Virus record (IMG/VR): IMGVR_UViG_3300010160_000090
Coordinates: 1 to 41,926 of that record
Length of the DNA stretch: 41,926 nucleotides
Source of the DNA: a virus
Direction: 5' to 3' (one strand)
A program made the position numbers and the translations under genes. The notes beneath the pieces are model-generated. The model was not told where the DNA came from. It ran no database searches and saw nothing but the letters and a program-made list of their open reading frames with translations. Shown here piece by piece: positions 26,991 to 30,226 of the stretch. Numbering within the stretch: position 1 is the stretch's first letter; each line of letters starts with the position of its first letter.

Positions 26991-27482
26991 TTAGTTTTCT
27001 TCTGCGCTGAAGTCATCTACTTCAGTAGAAACGTCGTCACAATCAACGTCATTGTGGCGTCCGCAATAATCAATGCTGATATCAAAGTCACCGTCATCGA
27101 TTTTTTCTTCGTCAAAGTCAAGTGGAACAGTTAGTTCTGCTTCTACGTTAACTGTGAACGAAACTGATATTGTTTTAGTTAGTTCTATATCAAGTTCTGC
27201 GGCAAGTTCTTTTAGTTCTTCTACTGACGCTGAATCGTTCTCCTTGATATGTTCCTTAAGAAACTCTTCTACTGTATTTGTAACTTCTCGCAAACGAGCG
27301 CGGTGTGTATTAGACGCTTGCTCTGTATACTCTAAACGCTTTTTGAGAGATTCGATTGTATTGAAGTGAATCACAAACTCATCTACAAGGTCGCCAAACG
27401 AATGGTCCTTGATAAATTCTTCTGCGATTTGTGCTGGTGTTTGTTCTACTACTATTTCTGTATTTGTTATATCTGTAGTCAT
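26991..27482 (-). CDS. Acidic coiled-coil protein downstream of ribozyme 2
   Basis: 163 residues. The middle is a coiled coil (ESLKKRLEYTEQASNTHR, REVTNTVEEFLKEHI), and the last 45 residues are very acidic (FDEEKIDDGDFDISID). It could imitate DNA or act as a dimeric inhibitor. An AAAGGGAAAA site precedes the ATG. Its 5' leader holds the stem I hairpin left after cleavage by the hammerhead ribozyme at 27.5 kb. Confidence 0.72.
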   Translation of the reverse strand: MTTDITNTEIVVEQTPAQIAEEFIKDHSFGDLVDEFVIHFNTIESLKKRLEYTEQASNTHRARLREVTNTVEEFLKEHIKENDSASVEELKELAAELDIELTKTISVSFTVNVEAELTVPLDFDEEKIDDGDFDISIDYCGRHNDVDCDDVSTEVDDFSAEEN

Positions 27483-27503: not shown

Positions 27504-27520
27504 CTGATGAGGCTCATCAG
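27504..27520 (-). promoter_or_regulatory. Palindrome masking the ribozyme 2 catalytic core
   Basis: CTGATGA (27504-27510) and TCATCAG (27514-27520) form a perfect 7 bp inverted repeat around GGC. On the minus strand the CUGAUGA core of ribozyme 2 can pair with this downstream copy. That hairpin would compete with the active fold. The other two ribozymes lack it. Confidence 0.75.
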
Positions 27521-27562
27521 CAGTACCGTTCAGTACTGGACTCCCTTACGGGAGTTTCGCCT
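27510..27562 (-). ncRNA. Type II hammerhead ribozyme 2
   Basis: Minus-strand order: AGGC (stem II), GAAA (27555-27558), stem III CTCCC/GGGAG with GTAA loop, cleavage site UC (27539-27540), stem I CAGTAC/GTACTG, core CTGATGA (27514-27520), GCCT closing stem II. Every conserved core base, including the G10.1-C11.1 pair, is present. Predicted cut is between 27539 and 27538. Stem II is the open helix, hence type II. It starts five bases past the stop of a 39-residue gene and lies upstream of the acidic coiled-coil gene. Confidence 0.92.
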
Positions 27563-27566
27563 TACT

Positions 27567-27686
27567 TTATTTTGCTTCTGTTTTATAGTCACACTTTGGA
27601 CATTGTTCGTATTTCTTCCAAGGAAGATTATCAAAATTAATAATCTTATTTGTATACATTTTCGTTCCGCATTGAGGACATTTCAT
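27567..27686 (-). CDS. 39-residue zinc-ribbon protein
   Basis: MKCPQCGTKMYTNKIIN, then LPWKKYEQCPKCDYKTEAK: a textbook CPxCG...CPKC zinc ribbon. GAGAAGGTG precedes the ATG at good distance. It follows the preceding stop by six bases. The hammerhead ribozyme 2 begins right after its stop, so the mRNA end would be set by the ribozyme. The function is unknown. Confidence 0.75.
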   Translation of the reverse strand: MKCPQCGTKMYTNKIINFDNLPWKKYEQCPKCDYKTEAK

Positions 27687-27692
27687 TTAACG

Positions 27693-28058
27693 CTACACCT
27701 TCTCTTTCTCTTGAACGCTGTAAATTGAACCGCGTATTTCTTTGATTTCTGCATCTTCTTTCTTGATGAATCCGAAGTCCGCGCAGATGTAAACCTGACC
27801 GTCGATTTCGATTTCGTCACCGATTGAAATTGAAGTGTGAGTGCGAGTTGCAGATAACTTCTTTTCAATCTGGTTCCAGATTAAACCGCTATAAGTGTTT
27901 GTATCTTTGTAAATCCACTCGCAGATGTTTACGTCAGCGATTTCGTTGATGTTCTGACCAGTAAATGAACCAAGTTCAAACTCCACTGATGAAACGAAAC
28001 GACCAATCTCTGGCTTATCACCGAACGCTTTCCAACTGATTTTGATTTTCTTTGTCAT
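27693..28058 (-). CDS. Hypothetical protein
   Basis: 121 residues: TKKIKISWKAFGDKPEIG, then SVEFELGSFTGQNINEIADV, GDEIEIDGQVYICADFGFIKK and a final KEIRGSIYSVQEKEK. Mixed alpha/beta without Cys clusters. It looks like a small OB or beta-barrel protein by strand pattern, but I do not recognise the family. AAAGGGAGAAAC precedes the ATG. Confidence 0.68.
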   Translation of the reverse strand: MTKKIKISWKAFGDKPEIGRFVSSVEFELGSFTGQNINEIADVNICEWIYKDTNTYSGLIWNQIEKKLSATRTHTSISIGDEIEIDGQVYICADFGFIKKEDAEIKEIRGSIYSVQEKEKV

Positions 28059-28070
28059 TTGTTTCTCCCT

Positions 28071-28262
28071 TTAGTTTAATGAACCGAATTGGCGGATAAT
28101 GTTTGTAGCATTTTTTAATGCGTTTTTAACTGTGGAATTGTAATAAGTTCTTTGTCCTAAATATAAATCACCGAGCCAGGCGTCTATTTGAACTGCCCTT
28201 GGTTCTGCTGCTGGACGTTGTACGACTGTGTGTAAATCTTTGAGGTTTGATTTTGTTAGCAT
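28071..28262 (-). CDS. Small hypothetical protein
   Basis: 63 residues: KSNLKDLHTVVQRPAAEP, then IDAWLGDLYLGQRTYYNST and a helical end. An AAAAGGAGAAAT ribosome site lies upstream. It belongs to the run of short early genes that share this type of site. No family is recognised. Confidence 0.65.
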   Translation of the reverse strand: MLTKSNLKDLHTVVQRPAAEPRAVQIDAWLGDLYLGQRTYYNSTVKNALKNATNIIRQFGSLN

Positions 28263-28276
28263 TTTTATTTCTCCTT

Positions 28277-28474
28277 TTAATTAGTAGTTGAGTAGAATTG
28301 AACTGCGGTTAAAAATAAACCCTTGTCGAACTTAGGGTTTTGTGCTTGAAGCATTTCTATAATTACTTCTGTGTAGTAATCAAGCGCTTTTGTATCAAAA
28401 GCCAAACGGCGCTTTGAATCTTCGATAGTCCAACCGATTGACTTTGCGATTAGTTCGTAATCTTTCTTTGTCAT
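28277..28474 (-). CDS. Small hypothetical protein
   Basis: 65 residues, helical: KKDYELIAKSIGWTIEDSKRR, then LDYYTEVIIEMLQAQNPKFD. An AAAGGGAGAAAG site and a short gap place it in the same transcript as its neighbours. No family is recognised. Confidence 0.65.
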   Translation of the reverse strand: MTKKDYELIAKSIGWTIEDSKRRLAFDTKALDYYTEVIIEMLQAQNPKFDKGLFLTAVQFYSTTN

Positions 28475-28678
28475 TTACTTTCTCCCTTTTTCGATTTGCT
28501 CGTCTAACCAGCATTGGAGTATTGAAACGCTTGCTGTTAGTTCGTTAGCAAGTTGACCGAAATCTGAATCGTTAGTGAAATCGGTAATTGTTTTATCTTT
28601 CATCATCTTGTTTGCTTCTTGCATTAACATTCGTGCGTATTTAAAACTGCTACGAACATCTGACTTTGTATATTCCAT
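28475..28678 (-). CDS. Small hypothetical protein downstream of ribozyme 1
   Basis: 67 residues, helical: TKSDVRSSFKYARMLMQEA, then FGQLANELTASVSILQCWLDE. CAAGGGAT precedes the ATG. Its leader starts with the stem I hairpin produced when hammerhead ribozyme 1 cuts. No family is recognised. Confidence 0.65.
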   Translation of the reverse strand: MEYTKSDVRSSFKYARMLMQEANKMMKDKTITDFTNDSDFGQLANELTASVSILQCWLDEQIEKGRK

Positions 28679-28704
28679 TTTATTATCCCTTGTTTGTTTT
28701 AACT

Positions 28705-28757
28705 GAACTCGTCAGCAACCGCCGTTACGGTTGGACACCCTTTCGGGTGTTTCGTTC
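28705..28757 (-). ncRNA. Type II hammerhead ribozyme 1
   Basis: Minus-strand order: GAAC (stem II), GAAA (28750-28753), stem III CACCC/GGGTG with GAAA tetraloop, cleavage site UC (28734-28735), stem I CAACCG/CGGTTG, core CTGACGA (28709-28715), GTTC closing stem II. The fit to the hammerhead consensus is complete. The predicted cut is between 28734 and 28733. The element begins on the very next base after the TAA of the upstream gene and lies 27 bases before the next ATG. Confidence 0.93.
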
Positions 28758-29093
28758 TTAGTTATGTTTCATTCTGAAAGCGATTAATTTAATAATCGCT
28801 ACTGCGTCGTGATAACTTTGTACGTTTCTGAAATCGTACTTTTCTATTCCGTTAGGTTCATAAGCATTAATTCTGTAACCATCTACGCCTTCATATCTAA
28901 CGAAGATTGAAAAAATTCGCTTATCGTTAACTGTGTGACTGAATTGAAGTTGCTTTGGACGACGGTCTAATTTTGTACCTTCTGGACTATTACCAGCAAA
29001 AGCAATAATGGTATCTAATGCAAGTTCTTGTTTTGTTATAAAACTTGAAATTACTTTATTACTTGCGTCGTGCATTGTATTTGTTGTAGTCAT
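28758..29093 (-). CDS. Hypothetical protein between ribozymes 3 and 1
   Basis: 111 residues: DASNKVISSFITKQELALDTI, GTKLDRRPKQLQFSHTVND, FSIFVRYEGVDGYRINAYE, then FRNVQSYHDAVAIIKLI. Mixed alpha/beta and no recognised family. It is the first clear gene of the early operon. Hammerhead ribozyme 3 lies upstream and ribozyme 1 immediately downstream, so its mRNA would be cut out at both ends. AAAAGGGAAAAC precedes the ATG. Confidence 0.68.
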   Translation of the reverse strand: MTTTNTMHDASNKVISSFITKQELALDTIIAFAGNSPEGTKLDRRPKQLQFSHTVNDKRIFSIFVRYEGVDGYRINAYEPNGIEKYDFRNVQSYHDAVAIIKLIAFRMKHN

Positions 29094-29122
29094 TTTGTTT
29101 TCCCTTTTCTGTAGTGGCTGTT

Positions 29123-29184
29123 CTCATCAGTAACGGTTCGCCTGTCCGTTAGACACCGTGCCTTTTAGTGACACGGTGTTTCGA
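29123..29184 (-). ncRNA. Type II hammerhead ribozyme 3
   Basis: Minus-strand order: C then GAAA (29179-29182), stem III CACCGTG/CACGGTG with an 11-base loop, cleavage site UC (29152-29153), stem I TAACGG/CCGTTA, core CTGATGA (29124-29130), then GA. Core bases are all present, but the closing stem II is only about two pairs, weaker than in the other copies. The predicted cut is between 29152 and 29151. It lies in the leader of the first early gene. Confidence 0.85.
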
Positions 29185-29612
29185 TATAAGGTTGATTTAT
29201 TTTCTAAGGCTGGTTCACCATATTCCATTAACTTTTATTTGCATTGCGCTAAGTCGTGAAGTGTGTATCGCTCGCCGTTTTGATTTCTCTAACGGGTCTT
29301 GAATATCTAGTGCCTAATTTGTTTGTAGTGGCTCCTCACCTCTACAAGTAACCGAACGTCGTGTAACAGTTCGGCTTGGCGTTTTGATATTGGTATCGCG
29401 CTTCTGACTTTAGGTACTTGGTACCGTGCGGTGCTTTATTTTGTTTGGAACCGTTACTTGTAAAAGTTATCCGTTTGTCTTTACCTAAACTTGCTGGTGA
29501 CTTGTGGGGTTTTTACTTTGTCGGCTGGTTACGTGTTGAGAACTTTCCAAGATTTACTTCTTGGATTCTCTTGCCTTCTCTATTTAATTTAATTAGATTT
29601 ACTTTCTATCAC

Positions 29613-29650
29613 CCGATTTAATTCCCTTGGGATTTAAATGATTAAATCGG
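29613..29650. repeat. Hairpin B with CCCTTGGGA loop
   Basis: CCGATTTAAT (29613-29622) pairs with ATTAAATCGG (29641-29650) over 10 bp. The loop contains TTCCCTTGGGA, which recurs in the hairpin 70 bases further on. The shared loop with different stems suggests conserved RNA structure or a paired protein-binding site. Confidence 0.6.
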
Positions 29651-29692
29651 TTCACTAGTTTTGTAAACTAATCTTTGGCTTTTTTCTCTTCT

Positions 29693-29721
29693 GGTTCGCT
29701 TCCCTTGGGAATACCCGAACC
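29693..29721. repeat. Hairpin A with CCCTTGGGA loop
   Basis: GGTTCG (29693-29698) pairs with CGAACC (29716-29721). Between them TTCCCTTGGGA (29700-29710) can form its own small stem. It has the same loop motif as hairpin B and the same orientation. Confidence 0.55.
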
Positions 29722-29743
29722 GCGAGTGCCATATTAATTTGTA

Positions 29744-29772
29744 GTATTAACATTACCCCTAAAGTGTTACAA
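29744..29772 (-). promoter_or_regulatory. Weak candidate leftward promoter
   Basis: Minus strand: TTGTAA (29767-29772), a 17-base spacer, then TAATAC (29744-29749) preceded by TG. This is a sigma70-like layout of modest quality in the right place to drive the early operon. Other promoters in this region cannot be excluded. Confidence 0.28.
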
Positions 29773-29976
29773 ATACCAATACCGTTTATACCCCTTATTA
29801 GGGCGAGCCGTGAGCCTCAGTAAAGGGGCATATAAGCCTGTATGAGCCTGATAGGGGCAGGAAGTAGGTTCTTAGACCCCCAGACCCTTACGGGCATAAA
29901 AAATCAAGCAAAACAGATTTTTTTTGTTAACCTTAAAAAATTAAACACGCGCACGTTAAGCACATAATAAATTTAA

Positions 29977-30007
29977 TTGCGTTAATACCGTGTAACTCAT
30001 TTACAAT
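29977..30007 (+). promoter_or_regulatory. Candidate promoter of a leaderless rightward gene
   Basis: TACAAT (30002-30007) lies exactly six bases before the ATG at 30014. Transcription would then start at or next to the A of the start codon, giving an mRNA without a leader. TTGCGT (29977-29982) is a possible -35 with a long 19-base spacer. No ribosome-binding sequence is present before the ATG, in line with leaderless translation, common in actinobacteria. Confidence 0.5.
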
Positions 30008-30013
30008 AGCGCT

Positions 30014-30226
30014 ATGGCTTATTCATCTGTGGAAATGCGTTGCGGTGGTTTGGTTATTGCCGTTGGTACTGAACTTGCTTATCCAGACGCTATGGACGAT
30101 TTATGTGCGCGCACATTAAATCTATTTCGTGAAGGTGCGGCTACAGCAAAAGAAAATGATATTGATATTTCTAATATGCGATTAATCACTACCGATTATG
30201 GTGATGAATTAGAAGATGATGACTAA
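30014..30226 (+). CDS. Only rightward gene; small hypothetical protein
   Basis: 70 residues: SSVEMRCGGLVIAVGTELAY, then DDLCARTLNLFREGAATAKE and a strongly acidic end (GDELEDDD). Separate promoter and opposite direction suggest a regulatory or early role. It converges on the leftward nuclease-like gene, and the two overlap by four bases at their 3' ends. No family is recognised. The codon-level pattern and the promoter fit support a real gene. Confidence 0.65.
   Translation: MAYSSVEMRCGGLVIAVGTELAYPDAMDDLCARTLNLFREGAATAKENDIDISNMRLITTDYGDELEDDD

What the first reader, a model, noticed from the sequence alone, without database searches (positions are those of the whole stretch)
27504..29184. 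Array of three ribozymes that could cut the early operon into separate mRNAs
The three copies lie in 1.7 kb on the same strand, each between a stop codon or leader and a ribosome site. Cleavage would leave stem I as a 5' hairpin at the start of each downstream mRNA and free 2',3'-cyclic phosphate ends upstream. That would set individual mRNA stabilities by RNA catalysis alone, an operon-processing system I do not know to be described for phages of this type.
Basis: inference. Interest (0 to 1): 0.9.

Follow-up and report, generated by a model that had tools for sequence, protein, structure and literature searches.

The report
Ribozyme array punctuating a phage operon
This uncultured phage carries three self-cutting RNA elements (type II hammerhead ribozymes) in front of genes of one operon; ribozyme clusters of this kind were reported in prophages in 2011, but many of those in this phage group have an extra, evolutionarily covarying segment that can pair with and hide the ribozyme's own catalytic core.

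Summary
Three type II hammerhead ribozymes (HHRs) lie on the minus strand at 27504-27564, 28699-28759 and 29116-29188. Each leaves a 55-58 nt leader before a gene. A covariance model built without the window finds them at E = 1.5e-18, 5e-13 and 9e-7. Related viral contigs hold 176 distinct HHRs, up to 7 per locus, all on one strand within a locus, with a Shine-Dalgarno and ORF just downstream in 168. Where an upstream gene exists, its stop codon usually ends 2-10 nt before the ribozyme.

What looks new is a second structure. In about half of this subfamily the tail is complementary to the catalytic core (CUGANGA with UCNUYAG). The core's one variable base covaries with its partner: U-A 27, C-G 20, U-G 0, C-A 0. 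The window's 27504 copy has it. I read it as a refolding hairpin that caps the new mRNA 5' end, or as an off-state. No cleavage was measured.

The parts
27504..27564 (-). HHR1: type II hammerhead. Stem II 27559-27562/27510-27513, GAAA 27555-27558, stem III 27540-27555, cleavage 27539/27538, stem I hairpin 27521-27538, core CUGAUGA 27514-27520
   Evidence: E 1.5e-18 with a model that excludes the window
27504..27510 (-). Anticore UCAUCAG: exact complement of the HHR1 core CUGAUGA, 3-nt loop GCC; predicted 7-bp alternative hairpin
   Evidence: covariation
28699..28759 (-). HHR2: type II hammerhead, core CUGACGA 28709-28715, stem I 28716-28733, cleavage 28734/28733; begins directly after the stop codon of 28758-29093; only a 4-bp CUGA/UCAG complement, no full anticore
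   Evidence: E 5.2e-13
29116..29188 (-). HHR3: type II hammerhead in the leader, core CUGAUGA 29124-29130, stem I 29131-29151, cleavage 29152/29151, stem III loop ACUAAAA; possible 3-bp pseudoknot GGC 29140-29142 with GCC 29116-29118 (the model match covers 29118-29188)
   Evidence: Rfam RF02276, 31.9 bits; E 9.2e-7
26991..27482 (-). Gene downstream of HHR1, 163 aa, acidic coiled-coil-like, unknown function; relatives in other contigs also follow an HHR
28475..28678 (-). Gene downstream of HHR2, 67 aa, unknown
28758..29093 (-). Gene downstream of HHR3, 111 aa, unknown; first gene of the operon
27567..27686 (-). 39-aa CxxC/CxxC (zinc-ribbon-like) ORF whose stop lies 8 nt before GAAA of HHR1
   Evidence: read directly

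Best explanation
The three elements are type II hammerhead ribozymes that self-cleave the polycistronic transcript at intergenic junctions (HHR1, HHR2) and in the leader (HHR3). Each acts as a complete punctuation mark: upstream stop codon, then GAAA with stem III (a hairpin left at the 3' end of the upstream RNA, with a 2',3'-cyclic phosphate), cleavage, then stem I (a blunt 5'-OH hairpin on the downstream mRNA), a 30-40 nt tail, Shine-Dalgarno and start codon. In HHR1-type copies the tail repeats the complement of the catalytic core. After cleavage the freed core CUGANGA would refold with UCNUYAG into a second hairpin directly next to stem I, displacing the upstream strand of stem II, making cleavage one-way and leaving the mRNA with two stacked 5' hairpins. 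Shown: sequences, helices, covariation of both structures, placement. Inferred: cleavage in vivo, effect on mRNA stability, and the direction of the refolding.
For: Catalytic fold: 97.9% of cells paired and 14 of 18 pairs changed on both sides, against 30-45% and 4-8 pairs when partners are slid. A strict descriptor gives 106 hits in 1.33 Mb and 0 on reversed sequence. Placement: 168/176 with SD+ORF on the same strand, against 395/880 random positions and 42/176 on the opposite strand; upstream stop codon median 4 nt before GAAA, quartiles 3-10, in 142 cases; 0 of 76 multi-ribozyme loci have mixed strands. Anticore: N7 versus the base before UYAG in loci not fetched by the anticore is U-A 27, C-G 20, U-G 0, C-A 0; mutual information 0.95 bit there and at most 0.36 at other offsets. 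Collection-wide counts in ribozyme context: U/A 22, C/G 16, C/A 0, U/G 0. Four of four independent changes of N7 on a tree of the downstream protein are matched by the partner. Pairing stops at the core boundary, reaching stem I in 3 of 68, so stem I can stay formed. The core/anticore hairpin is favoured over the catalytic pairing by 3.6 kcal/mol at the median in 48 of 48 (tertiary contacts not counted). Precedent for cleavage of a cluster in vitro and in E. coli: PMC3088659.
Against: No cleavage data, RNA ends or half-lives for any of these RNAs. Only one of the window's three copies has the full anticore. If the hairpin forms before cleavage it would inhibit rather than help. Many HHRs in other phages lack it (94 of 148 distinct unbiased copies have no UYAG tail). 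Most of the seven core/anticore pairs involve invariant core bases and cannot vary on both sides without killing the ribozyme, so covariation rests on N7 and a recurrent G-U change.
Confidence: 0.6

Rival explanations
1. The anticore is an off-switch. Before cleavage it sequesters the catalytic core, so that the ribozyme cuts only when something frees the core, for example a ribosome, a protein, Mg2+ or polymerase pausing. Cutting of the operon would then be regulated.
For: The alternative hairpin is the minimum-free-energy fold of HHR1 and beats the catalytic pairing in 48 of 48. It would emerge from polymerase only about 6 nt after stem II. Its stability tracks that of stem II (Spearman 0.41, p 3e-4; relatedness not corrected). 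Upstream stop codons lie so close that a terminating ribosome would cover GAAA.
Against: No conserved sensor domain is shared by the anticore copies; many have plain tetraloops on stem III. Energies omit the core's non-canonical pairs and the stem I-stem II contact.
Confidence: 0.25
2. Ordinary type II hammerheads only: the arrays are selfish or near-neutral, and cleavage has no role in the phage.
For: Ribozyme clusters are common in prophages with no demonstrated function (PMC3088659; PMC6155905 calls the role an open question).
Against: Strict placement at stop-to-SD gaps, single strand, a leader of nearly fixed length (quartiles 50-58 nt), and covarying structure held over about 90 downstream gene families.
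Confidence: 0.1
3. The inverted repeat CTGANGA..TCNTCAG acts in DNA as an operator for a dimeric protein, not in RNA.
For: In the commonest form it is a 7-3-7 dyad.
Against: Spacing varies from 2 to 5, a variant that pairs only through G-U (UCGUUAG) recurs, and it sits exactly on the ribozyme core.
Confidence: 0.03
4. Cleaved RNAs are religated or circularised to make circular or spliced RNAs.
For: Flanking ribozymes of one type could in principle give this.
Against: Perreault et al. looked for such products and found none; refolding of the core would oppose ligation.
Confidence: 0.04

Closest known systems
Clustered hammerhead ribozymes in prophages (Perreault et al. 2011, PMC3088659)
   Same: Several HHRs, often type II, around single genes or short gene blocks of phages; proposed processing of long phage transcripts; a triple cluster in A. 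tumefaciens cleaves in vitro and in E. coli
   Different: That paper, as searched, does not describe a tail complementary to the core or the stop-codon spacing; the present copies come from uncultured phages and fall under Rfam's cut-off
Rfam RF02276 Hammerhead_II
   Same: Same permutation (stem II open), same core; HHR3 and its orthologues have a loop I-tail pseudoknot as in the published consensus
   Different: HHR1/HHR2-type copies have an 18-nt stem I hairpin with a UNNNNG loop and no conserved pseudoknot; Rfam at gathering finds none in six multi-ribozyme loci of this design, but 10 in locus L169
Theta ribozymes of gut phages (PMC10879173)
   Same: Small self-cleaving ribozymes in phage genomes with a proposed RNA-processing role
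   Different: HDV-like fold, linked to tRNAs, not to mRNA junctions

Membership tests
Type II hammerhead ribozyme | Conserved core GAAA ... UH | ... CUGANGA | tested here: met
   All three copies
Type II hammerhead ribozyme | Stems I and III closed by loops, stem II open | tested here: met
   compensatory changes in all three stems among relatives. Stem II of HHR3 is only 2 bp, which is within the published range
Type II hammerhead ribozyme | Score above the Rfam RF02276 gathering threshold | tested here: not met
   31.9 and 27.1 bits against 37; HHR2 not listed. This is a curator's cut-off, not a structural feature; a family-specific model gives E <= 9.2e-7
Type II hammerhead ribozyme | Loop I-tail pseudoknot (in a majority, not all) | tested here: inconclusive
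   Possible 3 bp in HHR3 and possible 4 bp UAAC/GUUA in HHR2 by inspection; none conserved in HHR1
Type II hammerhead ribozyme | Self-cleavage at physiological Mg2+ | not testable with these tools
   Needs in vitro transcription
Prophage-type hammerhead cluster | Several ribozymes on one strand flanking genes of a phage operon | tested here: met
   Window and 40 of 89 locus groups with two or more; 0 of 76 multi-ribozyme loci mixed
Prophage-type hammerhead cluster | Processed mRNAs in vivo | not testable with these tools
   No RNA data available here

The most novel reading that the evidence does not exclude
A natural bistable hammerhead: the phage ribozymes carry a selected anticore that switches the catalytic core between a cutting fold and a hairpin, so that each cut is either gated or made irreversible, and the freed core is reused as a 5' mRNA cap. 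Ribozymes would then be true punctuation marks of phage operons, much as tRNAs punctuate mitochondrial transcripts.
Probability: 0.5. Interest if true: 0.8.

Novelty: new variant of a known kind. Interest (0 to 1): 0.6.

Why it matters
What bacterial and phage hammerheads are for has been open since 2011. This group gives a large, aligned set in which placement (stop codon, ribozyme, SD, start) and a second covarying structure point to mRNA processing at gene junctions. The covariation at the only variable core base says that pairing of the core with the tail is itself selected, which gives a direct experiment on gating or irreversibility of a natural ribozyme.

Tried and rejected
Rfam at gathering threshold finds nothing in the window. 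A nucleotide search of phage records with the array region finds nothing, and the HHR1 downstream gene has no relative in named phages, so no cultured phage with this array was found. A protein search with the gene 28758-29093 gave no relatives. The GTDB scan gave 16 stretches, of which only L235, L246 and L247 pass the full helix test, so it did not reveal a host. Promoter scans gave no signal above shuffles. A Watson-Crick pseudoknot between the UNNNNG loop I and the anticore tail was considered for HHR1 and rejected: the loop varies (UGAACG, UAAACG, UGGACG, UAAAUG) while the tail does not. More distant RecT relatives searched with the model (L032-L065) gave no match at E 0.1.

Full report
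What is there. The window is an uncultured viral record of 41,926 bases, 38.6% G+C, with nearly all genes on the minus strand. Three hammerhead ribozymes of type II (stem II open) lie on that strand. The core pattern occurs three times and in none of 100 shuffles. A covariance model built from 24 relatives, without the window, finds them at E = 1.5e-18 (27504-27564), 5.2e-13 (28699-28759) and 9.2e-7 (29118-29188), with nothing else better than E = 1. Rfam scores two of them below its threshold.

Placement. Predicted cuts fall at 27539/27538, 28734/28733 and 29152/29151, which leaves 56, 55 and 58 nt before the start codons at 27482, 28678 and 29093 (coordinates derived). HHR3 lies in the leader of the operon's first gene, HHR2 directly after that gene's stop codon, and HHR1 8 nt after the stop of a 39-aa ORF. 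Cutting would give a leader RNA, a one-gene mRNA, a five-gene mRNA and the rest of the operon.

Relatives. Homologues of the gene after HHR1, RecT homologues and DNA pattern scans brought in viral contigs. A strict descriptor (core, H17, stems I, II and III) finds 106 hits in 1.33 Mb and none on reversed sequence. In the full set there are 176 distinct ribozymes; 168 have a Shine-Dalgarno and an ORF within 140 nt on the same strand, cleavage site to start codon is 55 nt at the median (quartiles 50-58), and the downstream proteins fall into 90 clusters. In 142 cases with an upstream ORF, its stop codon ends 4 nt before GAAA at the median, with quartiles of 3 and 10. No locus with several ribozymes mixes strands, and 40 of 89 locus groups have two or more, up to seven by the descriptor. 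The catalytic fold covaries strongly: 14 of 18 pairs with changes on both sides and 97.9% of cells paired.

Two designs. In loci of the window's group that have both, copies with the ACUAAAA heptaloop on stem III come first, and nearly all of them have a long loop I; copies with an 18-nt stem I hairpin and plain or larger stem III follow. The first design has the published loop I-tail pseudoknot in many members (for example UUGGC/GCCAA in L011). The second often has a tail complementary to the catalytic core.

The anticore. In HHR1 the tail UCAUCAG is the exact complement of the core CUGAUGA, separated by GCC. N7 is the only variable base of the core. In loci that were not fetched by the anticore, the base before UYAG in the tail is A in 27 and G in 0 of the U7 copies, and G in 20 and A in 0 of the C7 copies; 7 U7 copies have a pyrimidine there. 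Mutual information is 0.95 bit at that offset and at most 0.36 at others. An exact search for the four combinations with the GCC loop gave, in ribozyme context, 22 U/A, 16 C/G, 0 C/A and 0 U/G, although the last two strings do occur elsewhere in the collection, 4 and 21 times. On a tree of the commonest downstream protein, N7 changes four times and the partner changes with it each time; the small DUF932 tree adds one supported case. G-U pairs at G5 and loops of 2-5 nt also occur, which argues for RNA rather than a DNA operator. The Fisher value counts sequences, not events.

Mechanism. Pairing of core and anticore excludes the catalytic fold. By nearest-neighbour energies it is favoured over the catalytic pairing in 48 of 48 copies, by 3.6 kcal/mol at the median and 3.3 in the window, but this ignores the core's own contacts. 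It stops at the core boundary and would reach into stem I in only 3 of 68, so stem I and the new hairpin can stack. I think the likeliest use is after cleavage: the freed core refolds, displaces the upstream strand of stem II, and gives the mRNA a 5' end with two flush hairpins, while stem III closes the upstream 3' end. An off-switch before cleavage is the main rival. Neither was tested.

Novelty. The idea that hammerhead arrays process phage transcripts was published in 2011, with cleavage of an A. tumefaciens triple array in vitro and in E. coli (PMC3088659). A 2017 review still lists the role as open (PMC6155905). I found no description of the anticore in the open papers searched, but subscription papers are not held. 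Rfam at gathering finds none of the ribozymes in six multi-ribozyme loci of this design. I therefore rate it a new variant of a known kind.

Limits. All evidence is sequence. The HHR2 copy of the window has only a 4-bp complement to its core, and HHR3 none, so the anticore statement applies to one of the three copies here and to many in relatives. That the operon is early, and the host, are not established.

Noticed in passing
29131-29188 and L004, L007, L009, L011, L013, L016, L020, L024: Stem III of the first ribozyme in the operon ends in a conserved heptaloop ACUAAAA (AAUAAAA in L004) although the stem below it varies freely; it may bind a protein or RNA.
   Followed up: partly
L018, L020, L021, L074, L082, L085, L101 (stem III): A second kind of stem III carries a conserved insert of the form AGUMRGCAR..UUUAAUCC, possibly a small hairpin with an RGCA loop; conserved unpaired bases inside a ribozyme stem are unusual.
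   Followed up: partly
L169 (contig IMGVR_UViG_3300043750_000009), 6402-14004: Ten Rfam-grade type II hammerheads on one strand within about 7.6 kb of a viral contig.
   Followed up: no
30014-30226 (+): A plausible 70-aa gene on the plus strand, in a window otherwise coded on the minus strand; the 0.8 kb gap 29190-30013 next to it probably holds divergent promoters.
   Followed up: no
L022 5875, L023 5204: Ribozymes with A at core position 7 (CUGAAGA) and a UA cleavage site.
   Followed up: no
L200, L185, L230: Near-identical ribozymes placed before pentapeptide-repeat-like protein genes, several per contig.
   Followed up: no
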